Assembly (NCBI RefSeq): GCF_036417845.1
Contig: NC_089980.1
Location: 58,960,501-59,024,500 of the forward strand
DNA length: 64,000 nt
Direction of reading: 5' to 3'
From: Apteryx mantelli
Taxonomy: Eukaryota; Chordata; Aves; Apterygiformes; Apterygidae
The position numbers and the translations under genes were made by a program. Under the pieces are notes generated by a model that had not been told where the DNA came from, ran no database searches, and worked only from the letters and a program-made list of their open reading frames with translations. Shown piece after piece: positions 897 to 62,481 of this stretch (position 1 is its first letter; each line of letters starts with the position of its first letter).

Positions 897-21859
<20,963 letters not shown>

Positions 21860-22021: not shown

Positions 22022-22072
22022 CCCGCCCCGGCCCCGGCGGGCGACGGCGACGCGGGCGGCGGTGGCGGCCGC

Positions 22073-22090
22073 CTACAACCCCCACAATGC
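22073..22090 (+). promoter_or_regulatory. ZNF143/SBS-like site in the B3GALNT2 promoter
   Basis: CTACAACCCCCACAATGC closely matches the known ZNF143 (Staf, SBS) motif CTACAACTCCCAGAATGC, with two differences. It lies about 215 bases upstream of the B3GALNT2 start codon, in the CpG island where such sites are usual. Motif match only. Confidence 0.5.
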
Positions 22091-23048
22091 CGCGGGGCGG
22101 CGCGGGCGGCTGAGGCAAGGCGGGCCGGGCCGGGCCGGGGAGGGGGCGCCGCGGCGCGGGGCGGCACCTGGGAGGGGGGGCTTTGCCTCATGCTTTATGT
22201 GATACTGGAGACTAAATGGTGGGGGGAAGGAGAAACATACCTCCGAGCGAAAACAGCACTGTTTTTCCCTGAAGGAGCGCGTTAAAGGAGGCCCTGGCTG
22301 ACGGGAGGGGCGCGGGCACCTCGGTGCCCCCTGCTCTCGGTCACTTCTTTTCTCTCTCCCCGGTGCTGGCAGTTGACCGTAAGGCAGCGAAACACCCAAG
22401 AAACGTGTGGCAGAAGTCAGCTGCATTGGGGTCACTTAGCAGATGAAAAGCCGCATATATATATATACTGCCTCTAAACCCGCTCTGAGGCGGTGGCCCG
22501 CAGGCCCCGAGCGGCGCCTGTCCCGCTCGGCATTGGCAGCCCCCAGGCAGGCCCGAGGCCAGGCCGGCTGCCGTCCCACGGCCCGCCCGTGTCGGGGAGC
22601 CCAGGGAGCAGGAGAGGCTGGAGCGCGAGGGGGAAGGACGTGGCTGTGGAGGACACTGGGCTTCTCTAGTTTTGCTGCTCATAAGAACAGCTTTTGTTTA
22701 TGCCTAATGCCAAAGGTTAATCGGTGATGTCTCCAAGTGCACCTCTCAAATGGAGGAAATATGTTACTGTTTCAGTTCTTTCCTTCTCAGTGGAAAAGTT
22801 GCTTGTCCTGTTATTATTCAGGCTCCCTTTTAATCAGAAATTTGAAATGTAGGCATTTAAATCCATTTCCTGATTAGGTGTCCTCACAATCCCTTATAAG
22901 CTGCATGGACACCCCAAGCATGTATCAAATCAAATCTTAGACTCCAGAACAGCGACACCTTACATGTCTACGATACCACTATAAAATGGAAGCACCAACA
23001 CTTGCATTATTCTGTGCTAGCAGCTCCCTCTGCTGCTATTGATATTTT

Positions 23049-23125
23049 ACAACATCCTTGAAAGCTACTTATTGTTTTACCCCTTCCACGGAGAGGGGAG
23101 CTGAGGCACAGAGGCTGTGTCTGGA
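23049..23125 (+). repeat. Possible MIR-type SINE piece
   Basis: The order of ACAAC...TTATTGTTTTACCCC...GGGAGCTGAGGCACAGAGG matches the middle of the MIR consensus (counterpart ATTATCCCCATTTTACAG then CTGAGGCACAGAG). Old and diverged. Confidence 0.4.
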
Positions 23126-23961: not shown

Positions 23962-26376
23962 CAGGCATACCTTGTTTTATTGCGCTTCGCTTTACTGCAC
24001 TTCGCAGATATTGCATTTTTTACAAATTGAAGGTTTGTAGCAACTCTGCGTCAAGCAAGTCTATCGGCGCCATTTTTCCAACAGCATGTGTTCACTTCAT
24101 GTCTCTGTGTCACATTTTGGTAATTCTTGCAATATTTCAAACTTTTTCATTATTATTATATCTGTTGTGGTGATCTGTGATCAGTGATCTTTGATATTAC
24201 TATTGGAATTGTTTTGGGGTGCCACGAACTGTGCCCATATAAGACAGCAAATTTAATCGATAAATGTTGTGTCTGTTTTGACTGCTCCATCGACCAGCCA
24301 TTCCCCCATCTCTCCCCCTCTCCTCGGGCCTCCCTACTCCCCGAGACACAGCGATATGGAAATTAGGGCAGTTAATAACCCGACCGCAGCCTCTAAGCAT
24401 TCAGGTGAAAGGAAGAGTCACATGTCTTTCACTTTAAATCAAAAGCTTGAAATGATGAAGCTTAGTGAGGAAGGCATGTTGAAAGCTGAGATGGGCCGAA
24501 AGCTCGGCCTCTTGCGCCAAACAGTGAGCCACGTTGTGAATGCAAAGGAAAAGTTCCTGAAGGAAATTCAAAGTGCTACTCCAGTGAACGCATGAATGAT
24601 AAGAAAGCGAAGCAGCCTTATTGCTGATATGGAGAAAGTTTTAGTGGTCTGGATAGAAGATCAAACCGGCCACAATGTTCCCTTAAACCAAAGCCTAATC
24701 CGGTGCAAGGCCCTAACTCCCTTCAGTTCTAGGAAGGCTGAGAGAGGTGAGGAAGCTGCAGAAGAAAAGTCTGAGGCTAGCAGAGGTTGGTTCATGAGGT
24801 TTCCGGAAAGAAGCCGTCTCCATAACATCGAAGTGCAAGGTGAAGCAGCAAGTGCTGATGCAGAAGCTGCAGCAAGTTATGCAGAAGATCTAGCTAAGAG
24901 AATTGAGGAAGGTGGCTACACTAAACAACAGATTTTCAATGTAGACGAAACAGCCTTATATTGGAAGAAGATGCCATCTAGGACTTTCATAGCTAGAGAG
25001 AAGTCAATGCCTGGCTTCAAAGCTTCAGAGGACAGGCTGACTCTCTTGTTAGGGGCTAATGCAGCTCGTGACTTTAAGTTGAAGCCAATGCTCATTTACC
25101 ATTCGGAAAATCCGAGGGCCCTTAAGAATTATGCTCAGTCTGCTCTGCCTGTGCTCTATAAATGGAACTACAAAGCCTGGATGACGGCATATCTGTTTAC
25201 AACATGGTTTACTGAATATTTTAAGCCCACTGTTGAGACCTACTGCTCAGAAAAAAAGATTCCTTTCAAAATATTACTGCTCATTGACAATGCACCTGGT
25301 CACCCAAGAGCTCTGATGGAGATGTACAGTGAGATTAATGTTGTTTTCATGCCTGCTAACACAACATCCATTCTGCAGCCTATGGATCAAGGAGTCATTT
25401 TGTCTTTCAGGTCTTATTATTTAAGAAATACATTTCGCAAGGCTATAGCTGCTGTAGGTGGTGATTCCTCTGATGGATCTGGGCAAAGTAAATTGAAAAC
25501 CTTCTGGGAAGGATTCACCATTCTAGATGCCATTAAGAACATTTGAGATGCATGGGAGGAGGTCAAAATATCAACATTCACAGGAGTTTGGAAGAAGTTG
25601 ATTCCAACCCTCCTGGATGACTTTGAGGGGTTCAAGACTTCAGTGGAGGAAGTAACTGCAGAGGTGGTGGAAATAGCAAGAGAACTAGAATGAGAAGTAG
25701 AGCCTGAATATGTGACTGAATTGCTGCAATCTCATGATAAAACTTTAATGGATGAGGAGTTGCTTCTTATGGATGAGCAAAGAAAGTGGTTTCTTGAGAT
25801 GGAATCTACTCCCGGTGAAGATGCTGTGAACATTGTTGAAATGACAACAAAGAATTTAGAATATGACATAAACTTAGTTGATAAAGCAGCAGCAGGGTTT
25901 GAGAGCATTGACTCCAATTTGGAAAGAAGTTCTATTGTGGGTAAAATGCTATCAAACAGCATCGCATGCTACAGAGAAATCCTTCGTGAAAGGAAGAGTC
26001 AATCGATGCGGCAAACTTCACCGCTGCCTTATTTTAAGAAATTGCCACAGCCACCCCAACCTTCAGCAGCCACCACCCCGATCAGTCAGCAGCCATCAAC
26101 ATCGAGGCAAGACCCTCCATCAGCAAAAAGATTACGACTCGCTGAAGGCTCAGATGATGGTTAGCATTTTTTAGCAATAAAGTATTTTTTAATTAAGGTA
26201 TGTACATTTTTTTTTAGACGTAATGCTATTGAACATTTAACAGACTACCGTATAGTGTAAACATAACTTTTATATGCACTGGGAAACCAAAAAATGTGTG
26301 TGACTCACTTTATTGCGGTATTCACTTTATTGCGGTGGTCTGGAACCAAACCCACAATATCACTGAGGTATGCCTG
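23962..26376 (+). mobile_element. Tigger1-type DNA transposon, near full length
   Basis: A 2415-base element of the pogo/Tigger branch of Tc1/mariner. It opens with CAGGCATACCT (23962-23972) and closes with the reverse complement (26366-26376). It is flanked on both sides by TA (23960-23961 and 26377-26378), the family's target-site duplication. The left subterminal TTTTATTGCGCTTCGC and the right paired 15-base repeats (26305-26319 and 26322-26336) are typical transposase-binding regions. The 5' leader, transposase frame, AATAAA at 26176-26181 and 3' end follow the mammalian Tigger1 consensus, as I remember it, along the whole length with only scattered substitutions. The insertion lies in the spacer upstream of B3GALNT2. 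Such preservation in avian-type DNA is unexpected. Confidence 0.93.
24386..26164 (+). pseudogene. Tigger1/TIGD1-like transposase, broken by three in-frame stops
   Basis: One reading frame of about 590 codons, the length of human TIGD1, runs without any frameshift to TAG at 26162. It is interrupted by TGA at 24593, 25544 and 25691. The expected start codon position (24386-24388) now reads GCA; Met codons upstream (24269) and downstream (24422, [12 protein letters not shown]) remain. Domains in order: a CENP-B N-type helix-turn-helix ([15 protein letters not shown]...LRQTVSHVV), a second CENP-B DNA-binding domain ([13 protein letters not shown] to [15 protein letters not shown]), and a DDE_1 catalytic domain. 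The catalytic Asp codons are all present: FNVDET (24944), LLIDNAPGH (25286) and QPMDQG (25385). The last pair is separated by 32 residues, as in Tigger. The first stop replaces an Arg codon as by CpG decay. The copy is now probably inactive. Confidence 0.9.
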
Positions 26377-27984
26377 TATTTGTGCAACACTACAATTATC
26401 TGCAGACTGATCCTCTTAAAAAGTCATTGTGTAATAAAAAAGTAGCTTCCCAGAACAATCCTTTATTAATCCAATAAAACTAACAGAGTGCTTCACTTTG
26501 GCAAAGAACTGCAACAGCATTACAGCACTCAGCAACCTAAGTGTTTCTGAGTGCGCTATGTTATTCCAAAAAGTGGAATATGTTATTTGACTAAAATTAC
26601 AGGGGAACTTTAGAAAATCAAAGTGTCATGACTGTAGCATGGCCAAGAAATGATGGTAACATTCTTGCTCTTGAGAAAGTATGTTATGAGATGTTAATAG
26701 TCCAAGCTCAATTTTGCATCTCACCTACAGCCACCACTTTCAGTAGCTGGGAGGGTCTAGACTGACCAGGCAGGAGGGGCACCATCCACAAAACATTGCT
26801 CACTGCAGTGCAGTGCTGTGGGTTTAAATAAGGTTAGATAAGATTAGCATAAGATTGTAGGCACTTTGAGAAGTTTCTTGTTTCTGATCTTTTTGAACAC
26901 AGATAGCAGAGAAATATTTCCCTGGCCTTCTGCAGGGTGAATTTGTCTGAAAAAGTGATGTGCATAAATAATCAGGTGCTTCTGAGGAGTTAATGTATAA
27001 TCTAAAAGTTAATGTGTAATGACTATAAGGTGTAAATGAAGGCTTGCTGATGCTTTTCTATCAGAAACACATAATTTAGTAATAGAACCGGATACATATA
27101 AAGTATAATTGAAGGGAAGGATTGAGTTTTTAGGAAAAGCATAAATTTGGTTTTGAAAATCCTCAAGCTGTAAAAAGTGATTGGAAAATGTTTAAAGTCC
27201 TTTTGCACAGTTTAGTTAAAATTAATTTTTTGTCAGCTGGGGTGAGATATTGCAAGGAGAACAAATGATTTTAACTTTTATATATTGGGTTTAAACAGCA
27301 AAAGGAAAATGTGTTGGAAATACATCAACTTTATTTTGTTTGCACACGCACATATTTAATACACAAATGAGTATATACTTGGCGGCAAGTAATAGTACTA
27401 GGAAAAAAAATAAGAAAAAAATGTTAGTGTTATTAATCACCATTTCCATTTGACTTGCCTTTTAGCAGATTCAGCTGCAGAAATGAAAACTGGTCCAACT
27501 GTTAACATTACTGTGTATTTTCCTATATTCCTTATAGTTAATAGGTTCTCTCCCTAAGCTTTACTCCAGTCCAGGTGAACTGATGGGGATCTTACTAATA
27601 AACATGTCCATTCCTGCAGACAAAACAGAGGACCCAATTCCTTAATACCTTGCTGTCTGTACAATCATGCACTCACCATGCTCAAGGATAAAGGACTATA
27701 TAATGTACAAAACGGGAGAAAAATTTTCCTAGTTTTATTTATCCTGGTCAAAAGGACGATATATATGCATTTTTATTGGTCATGAAGGATTAAAAATAGA
27801 GTTCATTCACAAAGGACAACTTTTTTACTTCATTTGCTGTAAAACTTTCTCCAAGATTTTTAAAGCCAGAGATTTGACCTAAGACTCTCAGCTTCATAGT
27901 CTGCTAATGGTGCAAGCAGCAGTACTTCTCGCGTTGTGTATAACATTGAAAGTGTGCACCTCTCTCTAAATCTTGAGATGATCA

Positions 27985-37996: not shown

Positions 37997-38125
37997 TCAA
38001 AGGATAGTACAAAAGAGTTTCTTCTCCCTAAAGGGATTTTCAGATGCAGGCACTGGAATAATAAGGGGATCTTCTCCAATATGAGCATCACAGTATGCCA
38101 ATAAATCAGCAGCAGCCTTGGATAC
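37997..38125 (-). CDS. GNG4: GNG4 coding exon 2 (C-terminus, CaaX)
   Basis: Starts after a TTTTAG acceptor with [12 protein letters not shown] and ends [10 protein letters not shown] followed by TGA (37999-37997). The strongest identifier in the gene. Confidence 0.96.
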
Positions 38126-41100
38126 CTAAAAGAAGAGAAGAAAGAACTGTTTTAAGACTTAATTCTGAACCAATCATCATTGCATAAATATTCTTCATAT
38201 AACATAAGATATTGGAAGCTTTCATAAAATAGGAATAGATTGGTTTAGAGCCCACAACTCTGAGTTTGCTCTTACTAGGCCTAATCATCCTTATATGCAT
38301 TTTATTTAATGTACTGACATGAAATGGTATTGATTTATATGATGGCTGTTTAACTGTTCCTCTTCCATCAGAAACAAGGTCAGGAGCATACACTGATGGA
38401 AACATGCATATGCTAATAATAAGGAAGCAATACGGATTCACAGTGAAATATGTGTTTCTGTAGAGGCCTTCTGCCTCAGCTCTTAATCCCAGTCATCAGA
38501 GAAGCAAAGTTGTAAGGTTTTCCATAAAGACCCTCTCCGCCCTCTCCTCCTTTGGATGCAAAAAAAAAAAAAAAATTCTCTGTTCTTTAGGCACATTAAC
38601 ATGAAATTAAAAAGCAGTAACAAATCAGGAGAAAAATGTGATCATTGTGAGTCATAGCTTCCATTTAAGCTAAATATTGCCCTTTTTGATGATTTCAGTC
38701 TAATATTTTCTGTTTAATCAGTCTAATATTTTCTGTTTAATAAATTATTATAAGTAATGCTGTATCACATCAATTTAAACCTGATAATTACCTTAAGGTT
38801 TTTTACACTTCTAGAATAAACAATTCTAAAGTTTCCAAATTTAGAATTCTACTTTAGGTTTACTGAGAAGTCCTACAGAAATATAACAAAACATGAAAGT
38901 CTTTCTGTAAATTTTGAGAAATATATAATCTATAATCTAGCAGAAATCTATGACTTGTTGTGTAAATCTGTGAATGCTGTTATGTATGTTTTATCCAATT
39001 TGTGGAGCAGTTTTAATAGAATGTTCTGTTTCATGGGGTCAAATTCAATATAATTCTCATCAAGATACAGTCACAGTCTGCCAATGCACAAGGTCAGTGT
39101 GTTGGCAGTCAAAATATTTTGTATGAAATTAAAAATGAAAACATTTCAGCTGTAGCTGAAATTTTGTAACAGAATCACAGAATCGCTGAGGTTGGAAGGG
39201 ACCTCTGGAGATCATCTAGTTTGCAGCTTTGTGCCATTAAAACATTGTTGACATTAAGCTCACTGTGACTCTTGTAAGTTTTTCAAGAATTTAGAATTCA
39301 TATACAAAATATTTTTGTTCTGCTCAGTTAGCAAGATAATTTTTACAACAATCGGAATCTCTTTGCTTTGTTTAATTATTGTGTTTTCAGTATTATGATA
39401 GAGACTGAGATGGGAAGTCTTTATAAAAGACTTATAAAAGAGTTTTACTGTAGTAAAGAGGAAAAATAAATCTGATTTCTGGTATTTTTCTGGCAGATGT
39501 GTCATCACTCTTATGTAGCTTCCTCATACCCAGCTTCCTTTGGCAGGAGTACAGCTTGTAGTAGGCTTTAGATTAGACCTATGCAGTCAGTCGGTGTTGC
39601 ATCAGCATTCATATGAAATTTCAATCCATTTCCAGAAGGAAAGAACTGACTTCCTATAATTGAAATATCCATTAAAATATGTCCTGCTAGAATTCTTAAA
39701 ACCACAAAGTACTTATGGTTGGCATCCCAGTAGAAACTAGGATAGCTGAGGAAGCACAGATGTGTAGATTACTTAAAATTAGCTTGATTTTGAATTAGAC
39801 GGTGAGACGAGAGGGTAGGCAGAGACATTACATGTGAACAATGGATTGCTGGGCCAATACAAAGCAGAAGGCTGAGTACTAGACTGAGCAAATCACCAGG
39901 CAGAGATATTCAGAAGGACCAGTGCATCTGAAAAGAGCGGCAGCTCAAACAAAAATGAGCCGTAGAGACTGACTTCAAGTGTAAAGAAAGGATTTTGAGT
40001 ATTTTCAGACATTCTTCAATTATTTGCTTACTAAGCAAGGACAAAAGGATGAAATTTACAGTTTGATGGCACAGTCTAGAGCCAGAGAGGTAGAACTGTA
40101 ATGGTGAAATAGAAAATTGAGACTGCTATCATATTCATAATTTTCATTTAAGCTTGCTAGTGAATTTAAAAAAATTGAATTCTCCAAACAGAGGCACAAT
40201 GTAGGCAGAGTATAAAATTCTTATCAAGCTCAAGAAAGATCAAAAGACAGCAAAAATACTTCTCTTTGCTAATGACCTGTGCTGTATCTCAGTAAAGTAT
40301 AAACTACATAGAATATATTCACTGAAGAGGAGGTTAACATGTTCCCAACAGCTTTAGGAGGAAGGTACACCACAGCCTTTTGGAGAAGCATTTTCAAGTA
40401 ATGAGAATCCCAATTATAATTATTTAACATACACATTTTCACTTTTCTATTGTCCTTCAAGCTCAGCTGTCTCTCTGAAAAGATAGTTCTATGCTCTAAT
40501 TTATTAGCTGGTCCTGAACTCTCATTCAAACTGAGCAAGTCAAACTCAGAGCCACAGGTGCCCACAGAAAGCTCAGTGACATTTTCAGTGCTATGTCACA
40601 ATAAACTTTACTGCCCTAAAATCTAACAGAGGGCTACTCTAATTCTCTGGGCCCCATAAACAGAGGTTATTAAAGATGCCTGGCACATTCACCTTCAATT
40701 ATTAAGCTGCTGAATGAGTTATTCTGTTCAAGAAACCAACAATCTTTTCAAGAAGACTGATCCTGCAAGAGCAGGGAACCAACGCTGCACTTCAACAGAC
40801 TGATCTTCCCATAGCTATTTTGCTTGTTCCACATACAGATAAGCAGCATCAGCCTAAGTATATTGCTTTTTGTTGGATGGAAGAGAAGTACAATTTCAAC
40901 CACATTTTTTAGAAGGGAAAACCCCAGTAATACCATTTTTTAATTGTTTCTCTACATTTTACTGTGCTTTCACATCACCTAAGAATTAAAAGGGGTTTAT
41001 CACTAGCAAAAAGCACAATATAAATATTCATATCCAACTTGTCCTCTGATACGCTGGTAGGGATGTGAAACAGCACAAAGCAGAGCAAGCAGATTCCTCA

Positions 41101-44100
41101 ACAATGCAGCGTTTAAACAACACAAACAAATGAGTTTGCTCTTAGACAAAATATAATACAGTTTAGAGGAAAACAAACCTGCAAAAAGGAACTGAGGAAC
41201 ATACATTTCAATGTACACAAATTCACAAACTGAATTCTGTACCTCTTAGCCTCTATTAGGCCACATATTTTCATGCTTAAAAAAGGGGGGAGGGATTGGG
41301 GAGATGAAATCCTCCTACACTGGGATTACAGTGGTTATAAAATTCAATTATGGCCATTTCTTCACTCAAATTGGAGTAGATCATGGCTGAGGCAGTAGAA
41401 TAATGATCACTGGAGAGTTAAGTTAGCTGATGACATTCCAGCAGCAATGAAAACATTTCTCACAACCATGAGAACTAAAATATAATGTTGCCTCCAGCAT
41501 GTTTCCTACTCAGTATTATTCAAAACAACAGAGGTGGAAGACTATAGCAAAGACAGCTTCTTTAGCATATGTCAGCATGCAGGGGTTGCCTAATGACCAA
41601 TAATGTGATTTGTTATTATATAAAATTACATCCTAATCATCCTATTTGTATCATGGAAGAAGTTAAATGAAGATCAGTCTATCATAGCTTGTACTCACCT
41701 TTAGCTTTTTTTGTAGATGAAAGTTGCCGGACAGTTTCAGAATGGCTTTTACCAAGAATTAAAATAAAAATATGTAATTTGAATATTCAAATTAAACTAA
41801 CATACATTTATCATTTCAGCTCTCCTACGCAATACAGCTTGAAGTACAGATTCAAAGTAATTTATACACACTGCAGAAGTGGCTAAAGAAAAAAAAATCA
41901 GACTCCACTTTGATTGATGAATTTTAAGAGAAAATTACCATTCCACATTTTTTTTATTTTAAAATGTATAGATACAGGAGCTGGAATACATATGTATCAA
42001 GCCAATCTCACATTTTATGCAATATTTTTTATTCTATGTGGTGTAAAAATACATCTGGCTGTCAAATTATCAGGGAAAAAAAAAGCCAACCCTGACGCTT
42101 TAAAGAATTAGTCTCAGGAGGACTGTAGAATTTTACCATTACATTTCAGAGTATCAGAGGTGATAAAAACAGCCAAAGTTAGAACATAATCCTGTTAGCT
42201 GCACTAATAATTATAAGCTTCAGTGACAGGGGAAAATGCTGCAATTACTATGTCATCTGCCTTGTCATGGATTGTGACTAATTACTATCCTTGCTATGAA
42301 ACCCACTCTGCTTATCCTTTACATCTAAAATGAAGAGATTCACACACATTTATCAGCAATCCCACCGCTTATCTCTTATCACTATTCAGAGCCAGTTAGG
42401 AATATTTTCTACCTTAAGAAAAAAAGAATAGTAGCTGATACACCATGGTTCTTAAATGTCAGAATATTCCTTCTTGCCTTTCTGTTTGTGAGGAGAAGAT
42501 TAAATAGTGCTTTACCCTTGGAACAACTGTGATGAAGCACCAATATTATCTTTGCTTTCTCAACTTCACTGCTAATATTTCTGGAAGATACATTATTCTA
42601 CTAGTCATGAGGCCATTGTCTGATTTTGTTTGATGTCTTCTAGCATGGAATCTGCTCTTCCTGATTTCTACTTACTTACTTCTGCATTATAATTCTAGCC
42701 GGTCCTTCTATGGAGAAGTAAGACAGATTCAGTTTATGATCCTTCTAGGATTCTTTTAGCTTACAAAAAAAATACTGCAGTAATACTCATTCCACCTACC
42801 AATGAATATACCAATACCTTCACCCTTTCCTCTCCTCTTAAGCTGTCCAGTTTCTTTCACACCTCAACCGTGAATTTTCTTTGTGGAGCTCAGAACACCG
42901 CATTGTTTGCTGCTCTGAATGGTTAGAGGACTTGATTTTTAAATCAGTTGAACAATCCAAAACACAGTGGGGAATGGGCAACTATAAACATACTTATAAC
43001 TACAAAATTTTAATTGAGTGGACCTAACTCTTGCTGGTTACAGCAACTACTCTGCACAGTAAACAAACTGTCCCTGTAGTAGAATAGTGAGCTTGAATTT
43101 TTCATTTCCCTACTCAATAAGGAGGGCACTCTAATGTTAACAATGTGGTCTTGTCTATTAAGGGAATAATCAGTTGGTTATAGCTGCTTGCAAAATAATG
43201 TTTAATGAAATTATTTTGGAAGTACTGTTCTTTTGTTAAATGTCTAATTAGTTCAAGCAGCTGCAAAACAGGAGAAAAAAAAGGAAAATGAGTTAATTTC
43301 TCTACCTTTACAGTTACAATCCAAGAACTCAAAAACCCCTGCTGAAACCATTGGAAAGTCTCTCGGTAAAACTTGGCTAGGCTGAAATAAACACTTACTA
43401 TTTCCAAGATTAAAAGCAAAAGCAGTTCTGGAGGGAATAAAAAACAAACCAACCCTTCCTCACAATCCCTCATATACTTGTTCAGAGAAATTCTGGAAAT
43501 CAAGGTATGAACCTTTTGCAAATCATGGTCTATGTTAGTATAGGAACCATTAAAATACTGAAACACAGTAGATTTTTTGGTGCTTTTGTTTTGTCCCAAG
43601 CTGTCTTGAAAGGTGAAATAATTGCACTTTTAAGCTATCTGGTTTCTAGATCTGCCACACCTGCTAATAACTGTGCTTTTTAAAATTAAATTAACTGCAA
43701 AAATAACCGAATGTCTTTTCTACATATGTAATTAAGAACATTACAAATCTAACAAATGAAGCTGTCCACATAACTGAGCTAATGATTTGGTACTTGAAAG
43801 GTATGATTTTATTATATAAAAGCAATTTTAAGACAATCTACCAAGCACTGACAATTTAAAGTTACAACAAACTCGGCCATATTTTTCCGACCTTTTCCTC
43901 TGCCACTCATTCACATCTTTTCCTTCTTGTCAGTTCCATTGTTCATGCAGCTGCAGGATGACCTGGGCCGGGGGACTAACCCAACTGAAAACTAACCTGT
44001 AGTTTTACACTACAAAAAGGCAGGCCCATAGTTAAGGAGGTCTGAAGTACCTGCAAAAGTTGACTAAAAAACAGTACAGTATGCTATACAATATATGTAT

Positions 44101-47100
44101 GCATTATTTTTGAAGATGCCCACAACTCTTTTGGGAAGCTAACCAATTAAACTAAAGATTAAGCAAAGAAGTTGTGCAGAATGACTATGGACTATGGTAC
44201 TTATTTCCTCACTTTTTAGTGTTTCCTTTGGTGATGCACAAATTCAGAGACAAGATCCCAAATCCAGTCTGCACAGGAATTTAATAGTTCAGAGTTAATC
44301 ATTAAGGAATACTTAAGCATCAAGGTTAATTATCATGCATATGACTGGGGGGGGGGGGAAAGAGTTCTCTTCCATGTTACCTTTACAGCTCTGATTCTAC
44401 CCCTGAACATCAAATTACTGCACAACTCTACTGCACTATCCCATTCTGCTTCCCACTTCACTGTTACCAATGTATGTTTTTGGTGCAACTCTTTTTGTTT
44501 CAATTTAAGAGCACTACTTCCCATAGCAATTGTATTCCATGAAAATCAATTAGTTTTCATTTATTTATAAAGGTAATTTAGTGGCTTGGTACAGAAAAAA
44601 GTGTGACCTTAAATGTACTCCAAGTGGTAAGAAAATAAACCAAAAGCAAAGAGTTTGTTTTTGTAATTGTCACCATGCAGGCTGAAAAATTAGAAATCTG
44701 GGAATTTACTACCATGTTTCTAAACTGAAATTAGTAGAACATCTGTAGAACTCTAAAATGGGCAATCAGGGATTTCTGCTTTGATGAGGTGATAGGAACA
44801 CCAGTTCCGTACTTCTGCTCATCCTTAAGCTCCTACTTCCCTACTGTGCACAAAACTGTCATTTATGCAAGGCCTTTTCAATGTACTCTTATCTCTTCCT
44901 ATCCTTTGGGGAGCTACTGCAAAGTGCACTAGAGAAAGCACTACTGTATACAGCTCTAACTGCAATCCCATGAGGCCAAGGTCGATGCTCCACAGCTGGT
45001 TCAAGAAAAAAACATTAAGCAGTTAAATCCACAGGAATTTCAATTAAGAATTTGATACCTGTACATGGTTTAATCCAAGAGATTGGATTATCACTGAGAA
45101 AAGGAACTGCTGAGGAAGCCCAGGGTTGACTGAGACTGTGATCATAGAATTGGGTGACATGGAGGAGGAAAGAGTCTCTGTGCCAAAATCTCTGCAGTCT
45201 ATCTTGAAGCTGATTTTTTTGCTCTTAGGTGTACTGAAGTAGCAGTATTTCAGGAAAAAGTCTCCTTGGTCCACCAAAACTTAGACATATGAATAGAATT
45301 AGCGGCTGATGTACACATGAGTTGCAATGGCATGATCTGGGCAAAGAGACACCTAACTAAGGTATATCAGTATCTGAGTCGTGTTCCTGCATTGTTCCTC
45401 CCTAAGGGCGCGAGGGAAGTCAACCTGTTATCCTGCAGTCCTCAACTTTGTTGCCAGATTAGCAAGGCGACTACACTCAAACCTTGAATAAATGTACAAT
45501 GTATGTGCATAAGGTAGTCTGTATGTTAGGAGACTTTGTGCTGACACCATTATGCAGCACTGCTTCAGCACCAGTAACAGTTATACTTTTGAAGTCACTG
45601 GAAGCTGGGTTAAGCCCTTCATGGAAAGAAAGATAGAATACAGACAACCTAGATATGTCCTGGACTAAACTAGTTATACTATCTAGAAAGTTTTGCTAAT
45701 GGTGCTGACATTTTGATCAGAAAAAGTACTTGCATATGGTCATGTGTATGTGGTGTGTCACAAGTACCACCTGAAGCAAGGTCAATCTAGAACTGAGTGT
45801 TAGAAACCAGTACATACTTCGGCAAAGTATAAAAGTCCACATAGTGTGAGAAGCAGATGGGATGCCAGGAGAAAACACACATAAGGAGACATTTTGTATT
45901 GCTGCCAAAAGAGTTCTGGGCTCAGGTGAGATGAATACATCAGGGGACTAACCCAACTGAAAACTAACCTGTAGTGTTACACTATAAAAAGGCAGGCCAA
46001 TAGTTAAAGAAATAGAAATAACTGCCCCTAGCGATACGCATCTAACACATGATGAATTTGTCAAGATACTATACAAGATACAAGCAAGAAACCATAGTTA
46101 TGCAAATTCAATTCACTTTATAAGACATTCCTAAAAACTGGGGCAAAAAGGAGCAACTAAAATTTATATTTTCATATAAGCAAGAGTAACTACTCATGTG
46201 AATTACTAATATTCATGAATTAAAGGTACTATCTTATCAGTGAGTTTACGATCTGATACTGTTTTGAAATTGTAATTATATAACATTACTCCCATATTGA
46301 CTACATCCAGGATTTCAGCTCACAGGAAGGATGGGCAAACAGACTGAATTAAGACTACATAAGCAATTTAAAGTATAATGTTTTTTAAACCACATTACTG
46401 AATTTGTAACCTAAAAATGTTAAACTACATTTGATTCCAGGAATTATAGTCACATCCCAGGAAATTATAAAGCTTTAAATAAATTAATCTCTAAATAACT
46501 GTATTTAAAGAAAGAATATTGTCATTAGGAAGCTGTATTTAAAATTTTTATAATTTTAGCACCAGCACTGACATATGATGATAACAATGACCACGTACTT
46601 ATGGGCTAGTTCAGCATTTTTAGCATTAAAACGTTAATCCCTACCAAATGAAGTTCCACCTCAACGTACATGTGATATAATCACAAAGTTTATTTGAAAT
46701 AAGAACTCTCCAACAGCTTTCTTTTCCTGTTTACTCCTGCAATAAATTTGCTGTACAATTCTGGGGTTAGCTGAGCCTTCATCTGCCCTGAATCAAACTG
46801 CACTGCTGCACACGTTTATCAGGTACTTAAACAAAGCTATCCTGTTGTAAAACTAGGCAGTGTCGAGCCCCAGCTTGTGAACTTCCTTATATGAGGTCTT
46901 CACATACTCAGGGATTTCTGTACTGCACTCCATACTGAAGAGCAGACACATTCTTGCTTTGTATCTTACATGCTATAAGCAAGCATTTCACTCTAGTTTC
47001 AGTATTACAGATAAAATTCCTACAGTCCTCTCAAATCTTAGCAAAAGCAGAATTTCCTTGACATCATAGAGACTGAAACGGTAACCGTAAAAGAGCTTTT

Positions 47101-48735
47101 CCAAGATCCCATTGCAAGTTCTGATCGGAGGGAGCTGTCAAGTTATGAACCCACTGCTTTTAGTGCTGCTAAGAGTCTGTGCAATGCTATTCTACCCTTC
47201 TGCCCCATAGCTGCAAGTTAATGCTGAGAATCCTCTAAATGCTATGGAGGCTACACCAGCCACTAGAATAACTCAAGAATTACAAGTACTACTTCAGGAG
47301 TCTCACTGACCTTTCTTGAGCTATTGGATTTCCATTTCTAGCACTTGAAAAGGCATATGACACACTGGTATAATATAATACTGTTAATAACAAAACAGTA
47401 TTTATACTGGCAACGCACGATTCTTGCTTTTATATTCTATGATAACCACAGACTATTAAGAATTGAAGACAAGAACTAAATATTGGCATTAAAGTCTCTG
47501 AACACAGATACTTGTATCCCCTGTTTTCTAAGTGGTTTCATTCCATTTTAAAGGACATCAGTATTACTAAAAATAAACTATGTGCAATTATCTTAAGACT
47601 TTCCAAATAATACTGTGTAATAATTTTAAAGAAATGCACTTATTTGTCAAGAGAGTTGTAAAAAAATCTGTTCAAGTGCTTCCTATATTTTTTAAAAGTT
47701 ACAGCTCAAAATTAACCTTCAGTACAAATACTGGTACTAGCATTACACAAAAAGGAATGCTGGAAATCCTCATCAACTTTGCAGAAAAATTGATTATATA
47801 AACGCATTCCTTCTTCCAGTCTTTCCATCTCTAAGGTCTTCTTACTTGCTAAAGGCTGGATTTTTCATCCAAACAATTAATCACAAATTTCAGAGCAAGA
47901 GAGAAAAAGAGAGATAAGCACCGCTTCCTTAAAACTTTCTATGGCATTATTAGTTTTTAGGTGCCTGATTTAATCACAAAATCTTAGCTTAATGGAAGAC
48001 AGAATGAAGGGGAAGAATGATTCTATGGTCTTTTTTGTTTACAAATGTTAAGAACTTCTGTATAATAACGCCTTTAACTAAAATGTTTAATCCACATACG
48101 TTTAGAGGTGTGATAAAACCCAGTCTCCACATATAACAGACTATCCAGTGTGAAGAAATCAGAACTGAACATTGCAATCATTACACTATTTAGTGCAAAG
48201 ACATCTGTGCTAAAACAAAGCAAATCAAATCAATTCAGCTTGTCTCATCATTATTTAAAAGCATTACAATGTCTTAAAGACTTATTCAAGTTCCTAAAGA
48301 GACACTTACCCTAGCACCAAGGAACCTGAACAGCACTTATATTCAGGTGCAGGTGAAAAAGGAGAGCAGCTGTGCATCAGTTAGCTGATTTAAACAAATT
48401 TCACAAAATACTGCATTTGGCAGATGTCATATAAAAATAGACTAGAAGCCAGTCTTTGAAAATTGCTTCACTAGAACCAAGCAGTTAGTAAATAACTGAT
48501 TCATAGGAGCTGAATATTGTTTTATATCTCAACACAAAATTTTGATTTCAGCTGATCAAGTCTTTCTTCAGTATTTAAGGGAAGCTGTACCACAAAGTAC
48601 TGAGTGAATACAAAATATCAACAATAAGTCTAAGTTTACCTTCATCCTATCCATGTATGCTTCCATTTTTAATTGCTCCACAGCTTTCCTTGCTTGAGAT
48701 ATATTGGTTGTACTGTTGGACATGAGCTCCTTCAT
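37997..48735 (-). CDS. GNG4: GNG4, G-protein gamma-4 subunit (two coding exons)
   Basis: Gamma subunit of heterotrimeric G proteins. It pairs with G-beta and anchors the dimer at the plasma membrane by a prenyl group. Exons at 48640-48735 (32 codons) and 37997-38125 (42 codons plus TGA) join at a codon boundary into a 74-residue protein. The N-terminal helix contains [19 protein letters not shown]; the C-terminal half contains [27 protein letters not shown] and the CaaX box CTIL, whose final Leu predicts geranylgeranylation. It is one residue shorter than human GNG4 (75 aa as remembered): a single Asn precedes STT where human has two. Gamma-2 and other paralogues fit less well. Upstream Met codons in the first coding exon frame lie in the intron. 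Confidence 0.95.
38696..38741 (+). repeat. Perfect 23-base tandem duplication
   Basis: Two identical adjacent copies of CAGTCTAATATTTTCTGTTT plus AAT. A recent local slippage or duplication event. Confidence 0.9.
39171..39222 (-). mobile_element. CR1 LINE 3' end, avian type, heavily truncated
   Basis: AGAATCACAGAATCGCTGAG followed by GTTGGAAGGGACCTCTGGAG and ATCATCTAGT is the reverse complement of the terminal segment of avian CR1 elements, including the ATTCTGTGATTCT tail. Only about 52 bases are present. This is the best single marker that the window is avian. Confidence 0.8.
43971..44038 (+). repeat. 68-base direct repeat, copy 1
   Basis: Starts GGGGACTAACCCAACTG and ends ATAGTTAAGGA. 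It is the same length as copy 2 at 45943-46010 with four substitutions, 1972 bases apart. Flanking sequence does not align. Confidence 0.85.
45943..46010 (+). repeat. 68-base direct repeat, copy 2
   Basis: Partner of the sequence at 43971-44038. It contains ACTATAAAAAGGCAGG, a TATA-box-like motif; the partner reads ACTACAAAAAGG at the same place. It could be an LTR fragment or another short repeat. Confidence 0.85.
48640..48735 (-). CDS. GNG4: GNG4 coding exon 1
   Basis: ATG at 48735-48733 begins [11 protein letters not shown]. The exon itself starts at 48745 after a CTTCTAG acceptor, giving ten bases of 5'UTR, and ends at an ATGAAG/GTAAAC donor. The acceptor implies an upstream non-coding exon. 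Confidence 0.94.
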
Positions 48736-59401: not shown

Positions 59402-59540
59402 TCACCCAGCTGCATAGCTGCTAAGGAATGAATAGAACATGGGTAGCTTCAAGCGCTGCTGGTCCTTGCGACACCAAGCTATAACATTTCCATCACTATT
59501 AGCTGTGAACAAGTGATGACCATCACAGGAAAATGTAAGG
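59402..59540 (-). CDS. LYST: LYST last exon
   Basis: A 139-base coding part encoding [31 protein letters not shown] and the C-terminus SSYAAG, with TGA at 59404-59402. Confidence 0.96.
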
Positions 59541-62481
59541 CTGAAAAACAAGAAAACAACCTGTTTTTGCATCAAATTTGGCTATTTAAAAATAGTAGTG
59601 AATATATTAAACACCACAAGAGTACAACCAATAAATTAGCTCTCGAGTAGGGGAGTCCCAGCAAGTACATTAGCGCAGTAGTGTGTTTGCCAATACCTAC
59701 TTAATCAGTCTTGTAACCAATCTGAACTGCAGTTTTGTCCAGCAATTTAACATGTCATGCAGTTTAGCACTTTCATTTATTTGCAGTGTCAAAGAAAGTC
59801 AGCTGTGCTGATCCTACTCACTCCCTGGGCTGTCCCTTCTATCTTCTGAAACTAAATCTGTCAGGTTTTGTGACACAGCATAGGACTTTTGTTCAGTTGG
59901 ATATTTCCTAAGCTATAACAGCAGTAAAACTCTCCAGTCATGCCATGGATATTGTTAGAGAGCATTAAGATCATCATCCATTTTCCATCTCATTTAAGCA
60001 AACTTCTTTAAATTATTCAGTAGCTACTAAATCATTATCAACAAGCTTTGTGAAATATGTTTCTTAAAGGGGATAATTGAATGACAGTAACTGCTATCAG
60101 ACAGGGCTTTTTCCTTCTAAAAGCCAATGATTAGTGGTTTGTTTTTTTAAATGGTGTTTCAGCAATGGTCACAACATAAAATTCCTAGAAGTGATCTGTT
60201 GGGTGAATTACTCACCAACAAGAGAAGTGATTACTCTACAAAGGGACAGATATCCCTATGGGCATATCAAGAATTGGATGCTTTGACTGTGTTCTGAAGA
60301 TGCTTTGACATGAGAATAATCCTGCTTATATAAATGATCAAGCAGACTCTCTAATGGGCAAAATTACACAAGCACTCTAAAATGGCAGCTTCCACCCTAC
60401 CTTAAATTTCATTTTCTCCTTTCTTTACTGCTTCCCTCCAGCCTCAGAAAAACTGGCTGAGGGGAAATGCACTGTCTTCATTTATTTCTGAGGGAGAAAA
60501 ACCTCTTATGTCTACTTGAGACTGCTCAAGTTAAAAGATTATCTCCTGATTATTACACAGCTCCTGGGGAAAAATACTAAACTTAAGAATAAAGAGTAGC
60601 TATTGTTTATTTCAAGGGAATCCTGCTGATTTCAATCTGTTTATCTTGTCCTGCTAGCAGCAGAAACTAGTTATTACTGTCATTACAAATACAGTACATT
60701 TGTGCTCTTTTCACTTCCATGACTAATTAGTAGGATGGCATGCCCATTTTCAGACATGGTTGTTTATCCCCTGTCCTCATGTCAAATTCCTGTTCAATAC
60801 TCAAGGCCAGTTTTCAGTTTTGTTTTCAAAGAAAAATACATTTACTGTAAGTTTAAAATATTTTTACCTTACAATAGGTTTGGCTGACTTTGAAAATGTT
60901 ATTTCTCGCACTGGCTTCAAGTCCCACGTACTCCACAGCCTGAAAGAAAGCCATTTTCCTTCACCTTTAATTTTAAAATATTTCAATGTTAAACATAACT
61001 AATTTTAGCAACTGCTAAGTTCAGAAACTGGACAACAGTTTGCCCAGCTTCTTTAAAGCCAAATATCAGTGTGACTGAGTCTACACGCTCTCAAAATGTG
61101 AGCCAAGTTATAAAAGCGTTTTAATAAATATAGAAATTCAAACACTTACCTTACAACTCCATTTTCTAGCCCCCCTGCAATCACATTGACAGATATTCCT
61201 TCAGGCTGGTTAGAGAAAGCAACAGAGCAAATACTTTCCCTGCAGTGTACATGTCCCACGAGATCACCATTAACTGTCCAAAGTCTCAAGTCACTACCCC
61301 CTCCAACTGTAACAGAACATAACACGGCAACATTAGAAGAAACCTAAACCACAGTTAGGGCTATGAAACAGAATTTAAGTGTTAAAAAATTCAGCTTCTC
61401 AAAGGATCAAAAGGTTTAAAGTGACTCCAAGTCACATGTGCTGCAGTACACAGTTCTCTTCTCTGCTTTTGTCATAATCAGCATGTGTAACACCAAGCTA
61501 CCGTAAAATGGTTCAAAAAATGTATCACTTCAGATCTGTGGGACATCGTACTTAACAAAATACTATATGAATTTATTTTTAATGATTAGTTTTCATGTAC
61601 TAGGAGGGAAACACTAAGAGAGAATTCATATAATCTACTTTAAGCAGCTAGTTTTTGAACCCTAAGTTAGGTCTGTCAGGAATCTGTTCCAATTTCAGGT
61701 CTTTATAAAGGGATAAAGCCATTAGCTATTGAACCTCTACACTTCACTCAAACCACTGCCTAATCATTTCTGGAGAAATTCATATGCTTCTTCTGTATAA
61801 AAAACAACTCCCTGCAAACCCCCCCCCCCCAACACACTCTTATTTGATCTTACAGATCCTTGGATGATTAATACACACTTGGTTACCAATATAACGGCAC
61901 ATCTCATGATCTATCTGGTCTACAAGTCAAAACAACTTTTCTTGACCCTCAAATGTACCTGAATCACAAACTGTTGCAATATCACCAGTTGTTTCACTAG
62001 CTGAAACTGCAGTCACAGGACTCTTGTGTCCGGCCAGACTCTGGACGTAGCACAACCTGAACAAAAGCAGAACAAGCCCAGAATTCAGACTCAAACACAG
62101 AAAAGGTTCTTCAAAAACATATTTAAGAGTTATCTTCATTTCAAGTAACATTTCACATAACAGCATTATTCATGTTCATTCTAGAATTCCAGTACACTTT
62201 GTGGGAACAAAACACTAAGGTTTTGCTTCACATTAAGATATACATGGAACGCGTTCTGTTAATATTAAAGGGTAGATACCCAGTTGAAAACCGGTATTTA
62301 CAAGCTAACCAATAGTAAATCTTATACGCATACACTTGTACCTGTTCAAATCCCAAATAATGCAGGTTCCATCTTTGCTGACACTTATCATTATACTGTA
62401 TGGTTTGCACACAAACAAGCTTGTTATCTCTGCTGTGTGACCGTACAGATGGACTTGTGACTCCATTTCTATCTCAGAAGG
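59402..62481 (-). CDS. LYST: LYST, C-terminal WD40 region (last five exons)
   Basis: Lysosomal trafficking regulator, a very large BEACH-WD40 protein (about 3800 residues in human) that controls size and trafficking of lysosomes and lysosome-related organelles. Loss causes Chediak-Higashi syndrome in people (established knowledge). Five minus-strand exons (62342-62481, 61959-62056, 61150-61306, 60868-60939, 59402-59540) join in frame with GT/AG borders to encode the last 201 residues and TGA. Four WD-type blades are visible, with [32 protein letters not shown] and DGNVIAWC near their ends. The protein terminates SFLSSYAAG. The BEACH domain and the rest lie off the right edge. Confidence 0.96.
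59541..60867 (-). other. LYST last intron
   Basis: AT-rich intron. No recognisable element. Confidence 0.75.
60868..60939 (-). CDS. LYST: LYST exon, second from last
   Basis: A 72-base exon encoding [20 protein letters not shown] then PIV, between TTTCAG and AAG/GTAAAA. Too short to notice without splice phase and similarity. Confidence 0.94.
61150..61306 (-). CDS. LYST: LYST exon, third from last
   Basis: A 157-base exon encoding [20 protein letters not shown], then [19 protein letters not shown] and LENGVV. Borders TTACAG and AAG/GTAAGT; phases match both sides. Confidence 0.95.
61959..62056 (-). CDS. LYST: LYST exon, fourth from last
   Basis: A 98-base exon encoding [20 protein letters not shown] and GDIATVCDS, bounded by TGTTCAG and CAG/GTACAT. 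Confidence 0.95.
62342..62481 (-). CDS. LYST: LYST exon, fifth from last
   Basis: Follows a TTTTTCAG acceptor. Encodes [38 protein letters not shown] and IIWDLN, and ends AACAG/GTACAA. One complete WD blade. Confidence 0.94.

What the first reader, a model, noticed from the sequence alone, without database searches (positions are those of the whole stretch)
23962..26376. Near-intact Tigger1 transposon in an avian-type locus: candidate horizontal transfer
The element has exact termini, TA target-site duplications, a complete 5' leader, a frameshift-free transposase frame and a complete 3' end. It matches the mammalian Tigger1 consensus and human TIGD1, as I remember them, nearly base for base. 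The surrounding locus looks avian (CR1, compact B3GALNT2-GNG4-LYST). Vertical descent from the bird-mammal ancestor would have destroyed such similarity, so transfer between lineages is the simplest explanation. Exact boundaries with a TA duplication argue against a chimeric assembly join.
Basis: partly seen in the sequence, partly recalled or inferred. Interest (0 to 1): 0.92.

Follow-up and report, generated by a model that had tools for sequence, protein, structure and literature searches.

The report
Mammal-type jumping gene in a bird
A DNA transposon known from mammals sits in this bird genome in hundreds of copies, most simply by transfer between species, and neighbouring copies on one chromosome appear to be overwriting each other by gene conversion.

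Summary
23962-26376 is a 2415-bp Tigger1 element between two TAs; its transposase frame is unshifted but has three in-frame stops. The host is a bird: beta-keratin arrays with feather-type frames, 8319 avian-type CR1 tails, compact B3GALNT2-GNG4-LYST. It is no contaminant or chimera: the host assembly (1.504 Gb) holds 257 copies of a catalytic-region 53-mer and 452 of a 5'-end 34-mer. Thirty copies fetched by score form a star; their commonest states equal the mammalian Tigger1 consensus, as recalled before I saw them, at 2395 of 2417 columns. Two Rfam families of Tigger-derived human microRNAs (a third weakly) match independently. Vertical descent cannot explain this; horizontal transfer is best. 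Donor, direction, date and species are open.

An unanticipated second result: copies within 2 Mb on one chromosome share mutations (20 of 24 pairs; 88 of 2187 otherwise). Seven close pairs are near-identical inside (22 of 15088 sites differ) but diverged in their outer tenth (88 of 1570), and changes favour G+C. That pattern is GC-biased ectopic gene conversion, in which the window copy appears to take part; a polishing artefact is the serious rival.

The parts
23962..26376 (+). Tigger1 (pogo-like, Tc1/mariner) DNA transposon copy, complete end to end
   Evidence: read directly; full-length matches elsewhere in the host genome
23960..23961 (.). 5' TA target-site duplication
26377..26378 (.). 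3' TA target-site duplication
24356..26164 (+). transposase frame, unshifted, with in-frame TGA stops at 24593-24595, 25544-25546, 25691-25693
24410..24568 (+). CENP-B_N DNA-binding domain (PF04218)
24623..24820 (+). HTH_Tnp_Tc5 DNA-binding domain (PF03221)
25031..25543 (+). DDE_1 catalytic domain match (PF03184); aspartate codons at 24944, 25286, 25385 (32 residues between the last two)
24623..24707 (-). stretch matching Rfam mir-1261, a Tigger-derived human microRNA family
   Evidence: 60.6 bits, E 7.1e-11, gathering score 91 not reached
25765..25830 (+). stretch matching Rfam mir-1255, a Tigger1-derived human microRNA family
   Evidence: (34.8 bits, gathering 63 not reached)
24965..25019 (-). 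stretch matching Rfam mir-1256 (weak)
   Evidence: E 0.07, 23.8 bits, gathering 70
898..21859 (-). host gene B3GALNT2, seven exon matches (first exon 21859-21782); the element lies about 2.1 kb upstream of it
   Evidence: tblastn with a recalled human protein
38000..48735 (-). host gene GNG4, two coding exons
   Evidence: recalled protein; PF00631, 6.9e-13, second exon
59405..62481 (-). host gene LYST, last coding exons
   Evidence: tblastn with a recalled human protein; Pfam gives only weak WD40-type hits
39168..39230 (-). CR1 3' tail of avian type
   Evidence: 94% over 52 bases to a recalled tail, E 5e-15

Best explanation
A Tigger1 DNA transposon practically identical to the mammalian family entered the germ line of an ancestor of this bird by horizontal transfer (inferred). 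It multiplied by cut-and-paste at TA sites into hundreds of dispersed copies (copies, ends and TA sites shown; the enzymatic step inferred from the DDE transposase). Most copies then decayed; the window copy is one of them, with three stops. Since insertion, copies on the same chromosome, chiefly within about 1-2 Mb, have exchanged internal sequence by ectopic, GC-biased gene conversion. This leaves the interior near-identical in recent pairs while the outermost ~100 bp keep older differences (pattern shown, process inferred).
For: Bird host: PF02422 with 229 candidates, 150 scored, every listed row over the cut-off, in arrays; feather-type keratin frames (type recalled); 8319 avian-type CR1 tails, 0 in the backwards control; contigs of 222.9, 173.4, 141.1, 90.8, 26.7 and 7.8 Mb. 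Family: 257 places for a 53-mer (up to 3 mismatches) and 452 for a 5' 34-mer (up to 2 mismatches), controls 0. 30 copies: exact TA directly on both sides in 15 of 30 by my count; star tree, terminal median 0.0452, internal median 0.0017 (longest internal branch 0.051, leading to a near-duplicate pair), recalled Tigger1 branch 0.0066. Recalled base equals the commonest state at 2395 of 2417 columns; at 143 columns where the window copy departs from it, the commonest state of the other 29 sides with it at 128, with the window at 12, with neither at 3. Conversion: 20 of 24 pairs within 2 Mb share a variant against 88 of 2187 others, 0 of 2000 shuffles reaching it; 7 close pairs differ at 88 of 1570 outer and 22 of 15088 inner sites, 406 unrelated pairs have an outer/inner ratio of median 1.37, range 0.62-2.83; divergence rises with distance; W>S 1736 against S>W 703. 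Window copy: the three C3 neighbours fetched rank first to third of 41 other copies in shared derived sites; two of the three show clustering, 1 and 2 of 5000 shuffles.
Against: No mammalian Tigger1 sequence could be fetched; the full-length comparison rests on a recalled consensus (validated indirectly) plus short microRNA references. No other bird or reptile genome could be searched, so the empty site, host range, donor and direction are untested. L011/L012 are identical from end to end (0 of 2416), which recent transposition explains as well as conversion; L046/L047 have 3 differences, too few to tell. The runs test is weak for the nearest C3 neighbour L057 (390 of 5000). Three of the five close pairs in the score-chosen set belong to one C13 trio. 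Close pairs among L046-L054 were chosen because they share a variant or scored alike nearby. The GC bias is measured against the recalled consensus. The species was not identified.
Confidence: 0.87

Rival explanations
1. Vertical descent: Tigger1 was present in the amniote ancestor and survived in birds.
For: Domesticated TIGD genes are old and syntenic in vertebrates, birds included (PMC7325037, passages). Published repeat tables list some TcMar-Tigger hits in birds: 273 covering 49,514 bp in an Amazon parrot and 528 covering 39,074 bp in the spotted owl, though these average under 200 bp and need not be Tigger1.
Against: The copies form one star with about 3.65% non-CpG divergence per copy around states that equal the recalled mammalian consensus at 99.1% of columns; in the window copy changes fall on codon positions 1/2/3 as 38/25/31, as in neutral decay. 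The barn owl table lists 0 TcMar-Tigger.
Confidence: 0.03
2. Contamination or chimeric assembly with human DNA.
For: None found beyond the similarity itself; in the window a MIR probe has one weak match (23063-23113, E 0.002) and an Alu probe one in the CpG island (22053-22109, E 0.006), against 0.33 and 0.92 in the reversed control (probes recalled).
Against: Hundreds of copies on many long contigs with their own flanks; an Alu probe finds 2 weak places in the whole assembly, 80% over about 77 bases, probably 7SL RNA.
Confidence: 0.01
3. Transfer did occur, but both mammals and this bird received Tigger1 from a third host (parasite, arthropod, reptile), or the bird lineage was a donor. Not exclusive of the main account.
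For: Published Tigger transfers involve arthropods, turtles and crocodilians (PMC9219625, section 11). The bird copies look younger than I recall mammalian copies to be, so an active source must have lasted somewhere.
Against: None testable here.
Confidence: 0.4
4. Near-identity of neighbouring copies reflects recent local hopping by a still active transposase, not gene conversion.
For: L011/L012 identical over all 2416 bp, 12.7 kb apart, unrelated flanks; 2 of 30 copies have neither stop nor frameshift against the recalled frame.
Against: In five of the seven close pairs the remaining differences sit mainly in the outer tenth, at 4.6-11.1% against at most 0.28% inside; transposition copies the whole element and cannot produce this.
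Confidence: 0.15
5. The homogenised interiors are an assembly or polishing artefact: short or linked reads anchored only at the ends.
For: The unhomogenised ends are about one short-read length long; linked reads could confuse neighbouring copies.
Against: Close pairs reach 205, 308 and 478 kb and similarity grades over 1-2 Mb, beyond usual linked-read molecules (recalled); the GC-ward bias and the mosaic sharing of the window copy at 1.0 and 1.8 Mb are not expected from polishing.
Confidence: 0.12

Closest known systems
Tigger1 of mammals (pogo clade, Tc1/mariner; source of human TIGD1)
   Same: Termini, TA sites, length, domain order, DD32D spacing and nucleotide sequence (full-length reference recalled).
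   Different: Host is a bird; the bird copies look young (half pairwise divergence 3.65%) and show neighbour homogenisation.
Tigger element of the single bird species in Guan et al. 2022 (PMC9219625; passages, sections 9 and 11)
   Same: A Tigger reported in birds, 584 aa, TA sites (table passage).
   Different: Listed as 3808 bp, intact copies 'ND'; species not named in the text I saw; no bird in the transfer events of section 11 (supplements not seen). Identity with this family unknown.
AviRTE transfers between birds and nematodes (Suh et al. 2016; recalled, seen only as a citation)
   Different: A retrotransposon; different partners.
Ectopic gene conversion among neighbouring Alu elements (recalled; no paper searched)
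   Same: Non-allelic, distance-dependent, GC-biased homogenisation of dispersed repeats.
   Different: Here between 2.4-kb DNA transposons in a bird, near full-length tracts, reaching hundreds of kb.

Membership tests
Tigger1 (pogo-like DNA transposon) | CENP-B-type N-terminal DNA-binding domain and DDE_1 catalytic domain in one frame | tested here: met
   (CENP-B_N, HTH_Tnp_Tc5, DDE_1 above cut-offs), on the pieces between stops; one frame
Tigger1 (pogo-like DNA transposon) | Three aspartates with DD32D spacing (TIGD1 is DD32D, PMC7325037) | tested here: met
   32 residues between second and third D
Tigger1 (pogo-like DNA transposon) | Short terminal inverted repeats and TA target-site duplication | tested here: met
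Tigger1 (pogo-like DNA transposon) | Nucleotide identity to mammalian Tigger1, not only to pogo elements at large | tested here: met
   short independent references, below Rfam gathering; full length only against a recalled consensus:
Tigger1 (pogo-like DNA transposon) | Grouping inside Tigger1 in a tree with real mammalian copies | not testable with these tools
   no mammalian copies found in the collections searched
[quoted passage not shown]
   the host clock is established knowledge, not measured here
[quoted passage not shown]
   no other vertebrate genome on hand; searches give only published repeat tables (barn owl 0, Amazon parrot 273, spotted owl 528 TcMar-Tigger hits)
[quoted passage not shown]
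Ectopic gene conversion | Homogenised interior with diverged ends between copies in unrelated flanks | tested here: met
   clear in 5 of 7 close pairs, the other two have 0 and 3 differences; flanks of 1500 bases compared for 6 pairs without a match, for the rest only the adjoining 20 bases were seen
Ectopic gene conversion | Similarity decays with distance on the chromosome | tested here: met
Ectopic gene conversion | GC-biased changes | tested here: met
   per-site W>S 0.0421 against S>W 0.0271 at non-CpG columns in 30 copies, relative to the recalled consensus

The most novel reading that the evidence does not exclude
A mammalian-type transposon that crossed into a bird not only amplified to hundreds of copies but is now held in chromosome-local networks of ongoing GC-biased gene conversion, reaching about 0.5 Mb strongly and 1-2 Mb weakly, which keeps the interiors of neighbouring copies almost identical. 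A few uninterrupted copies, and one end-to-end identical pair in unrelated flanks, leave open that the element is still mobile.
Probability: 0.75. Interest if true: 0.85.

Novelty: new member of a known kind. Interest (0 to 1): 0.8.

Why it matters
Transfers of transposable elements involving birds or mammals are rare in a survey of 307 vertebrate genomes (24 of at least 975 events; PMC7070016, passages). A family shared nearly letter for letter between mammals and a bird gives a traceable case. The dispersed copies also act as reporters of ectopic gene conversion: identical interiors, diverged ends, distance decay and GC bias can be measured genome-wide. This bears on how repeats are dated, since homogenised copies look younger than they are, and on how GC bias acts in birds.

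Tried and rejected
Host mitogenome for naming the species: a COX1 probe finds only broken pieces on C2 and C15, 59-68% identical, taken as nuclear mitochondrial fragments. Relatives of the transposase in viral contigs, bacterial and archaeal genomes, phages, plasmids and E. coli: none useful; one 34%-identical stretch over 64 residues in a spirochaete bin, L001. Printed Tigger1 sequences by letter search of papers: 11 papers listed, none about Tigger by title; seen as a listing only. PDB relatives by sequence: none up to E 1. Local hopping was my first reading of the near-identical neighbours; the diverged ends turned me to gene conversion. Dating: half the median pairwise non-CpG divergence, 0.0365 (26 copies after dropping 4 near-duplicates L012, L015, L024, L025), gives 16.6-36.5 My for recalled rates of 2.2e-9 to 1.0e-9 per site and year; conversion makes this unreliable. 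The recalled consensus could have been coloured by my having read the window; the test on 29 copies seen only later argues against that. It departs from the commonest state at 22 columns; which side is at fault is unknown. In the window copy 11 CpGs stand where the recall has TG or CA, against 28 the other way.

Full report
What was checked. Its transposase frame runs unshifted from 24356 to 26164 but is interrupted by TGA at 24593, 25544 and 25691. The pieces between stops carry CENP-B_N, HTH_Tnp_Tc5 and DDE_1; the two C-terminal pieces have no Pfam match. The second and third catalytic aspartates are 32 residues apart, as reported for TIGD1 (PMC7325037, passages). The window holds no second copy.

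Which family. No Dfam or mammalian sequence was on hand, so I used two kinds of reference. First, independent but short: Rfam families mir-1261 (E 7.1e-11), mir-1255 (E 5.4e-5) and mir-1256 (E 0.07) match the element, all below their gathering scores (none at gathering). PMC10136691 (table passages) lists miR-1255a and miR-1261, and as I read its merged cells miR-1256, under TcMar-Tigger; PMC10671384 and PMC3495686 (passages) place miR-1255 in Tigger1. The mature human miR-1255b-5p as printed fits 21 of 22 bases at 25770; 20 shuffles reach 17 at most and the rest of the window 16. The recall was tested on sequence I had not seen. In 30 copies fetched later from the host genome (the window copy among them) its base is the commonest state at 2395 of 2417 columns. 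At the 143 columns where it departs from the window copy, the commonest state of the other 29 copies sides with the recall at 128, with the window at 12 and with neither at 3.

Which host. Coding exons of B3GALNT2, GNG4 and the end of LYST lie on the minus strand in compact order (probes recalled; GNG4 also by PF00631). The host assembly has 1,504,198,195 bases in 408 contigs and the window is C3:58960501-59024500. PF02422, the beta-keratin family of birds and reptiles (recalled), gives 229 candidates, of which 150 were scored, every listed row passing the cut-off, mostly in long arrays. Two short stretches translate to feather-type keratin (type recalled) and a third to a related keratin. An avian-type CR1 tail pattern occurs at 8319 places with 0 in the backwards control. 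Contig lengths of 222.9, 173.4, 141.1, 90.8, 26.7 and 7.8 Mb fit a bird karyotype as I know it. An Alu probe finds only two weak places; in the window, MIR and Alu probes give one weak match each, E 0.002 and 0.006.

A resident family. The whole-element query has 913 first-look candidates, of which 40 were scored; the coding region has 578, the 5' end 756, the 3' end 869. Whole-assembly counts by pattern: a catalytic-region 53-mer with up to 3 mismatches at 257 places and a 5'-end 34-mer with up to 2 mismatches at 452 places, controls 0. Of the 30 best-scoring copies fetched, 15 have an exact TA directly on both sides by my count; in the others an end is mutated or the match stops short. The 30 copies form a star: terminal branches median 0.0452, internal median 0.0017, the only long internal branches leading to near-duplicates, and the recalled Tigger1 near the centre on a branch of 0.0066. 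Against the recalled frame, stops per copy have median 3 and frameshifting indels median 1; 2 of 30 copies have neither.

Transfer. Dead copies about 4% from the mammalian consensus at non-CpG sites (median 0.0415, range 0.027-0.050) are incompatible with neutral descent since the bird-mammal split (established knowledge, roughly 300 My). Contamination is excluded by number and flanks. Horizontal transfer remains. Direction and donor are untested. The library holds one bird species with a Tigger in Guan et al. 2022 (PMC9219625; passages and sections 9 and 11), listed at 3808 bp, not named in the text I saw and absent from the transfer events of section 11. Repeat tables of three bird genome papers list 0, 273 and 528 TcMar-Tigger hits (passages). 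Searches of the library for Tigger or Tigger1 with birds found no report of Tigger1 moving into birds; preprints and most subscription papers are not in it, and I opened only some of the papers listed.

Neighbours rewrite each other. Among the 30 copies chosen by score alone, all five pairs under 3% lie within 2 Mb on one contig (three of the five in one trio on C13), against 2 of the 430 other pairs. In the 67 listed copies with one mismatch in the 53-mer, 20 of 24 pairs within 2 Mb share the same variant against 88 of 2187 other pairs; 2000 label shuffles average 1.17 and reach 6 at most (the listing was cut after 100 of 257 places). Flanks of 1500 bases were compared for six pairs and none matches; for L046-L054 only the adjoining 20 bases were seen, and they differ. 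The remaining differences are not spread evenly. In seven close pairs the outer 10% of the element differs at 88 of 1570 sites and the inner 90% at 22 of 15088; 406 pairs among 29 unrelated copies differ at 11.9% and 8.3%. Two of the seven pairs have too few differences to judge: L011/L012 with 0 and L046/L047 with 3. Inner divergence rises with distance: median 0.05% under 100 kb (4 pairs), 0.26% at 100-500 kb (4), 4.2% at 0.5-1 Mb (6), 6.2% at 1-2 Mb (6), 7.6% at 2-5 Mb (5), 8.0% at 5-20 Mb (20), 8.6% beyond (104), 8.35% between contigs (712) (L046-L054 were picked for sharing a variant or scoring alike nearby, L055-L057 for proximity). Changes from the recalled consensus at non-CpG columns in 30 copies favour A/T to G/C, 1736 against 703, or 0.0421 against 0.0271 per site. 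Whole-element hopping cannot leave diverged ends around identical interiors; gene conversion limited by the edge of homology does. A polishing artefact with end-anchored short reads is the serious rival.

The window copy. Of 41 other aligned copies, the three that share most of its 143 derived sites are exactly the three fetched from its own neighbourhood on C3: L055 (1.84 Mb away) 64 of 142, L056 (1.02 Mb) 55 of 143, L057 (0.54 Mb) 42 of 116; the next best has 31 of 143. Shared sites are clustered for L055 and L056 (1 and 2 of 5000 shuffles) but not clearly for L057 (390 of 5000); three unrelated copies tested show no clustering (976, 1077 and 2797 of 5000). W>S changes are not clearly enriched among the shared sites: 36 of 64 and 33 of 55 against 40 of 78 and 43 of 88 unshared for L055 and L056, and 20 of 42 against 39 of 74 for L057.

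Verdict. The unexpected part is the conversion network.

Noticed in passing
window 43971-44038 and 45943-46010: A 68-bp direct repeat, 94% identical, start-to-start spacing 1972 bp, containing a TATA-like stretch; perhaps remnants of an LTR or a local duplication.
   Followed up: no
L057 (C3:59524800-59526800); C1:85689602-85691370, C3:106010429-106012238, C4:78640224-78641300: Internally deleted Tigger1 copies of about 1.1-1.8 kb; read directly only for L057 (1831 bp), the others inferred from the spacing of their ends. 5' ends (452) outnumber the internal 53-mer (257), though the two patterns differ in stringency.
   Followed up: partly
window 24997-24998, near the mir-1256 match: The window copy lacks 3 bases against the recalled consensus; 3 of 30 copies, itself included, have the short form and 15 the long form by exact-string test. 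The Rfam mir-1256 consensus also lacks them. Shared variant or repeated slippage.
   Followed up: partly
G000 C15:26341346-26653072: Very regular arrays of near-identical beta-keratin frames at about 5.6-kb spacing, 191-aa open frames.
   Followed up: no
G000 C13:8471752-8486903 (L011, L012): Two Tigger1 copies 12.7 kb apart in opposite orientation, identical over 2416 bp including ends, with unrelated flanks: complete conversion or a very recent transposition.
   Followed up: partly
L001 (spirochaete metagenome bin), 3001-3201: A stretch encoding a 34%-identical relative of part of the transposase in a bacterial bin, perhaps eukaryotic contamination.
   Followed up: no
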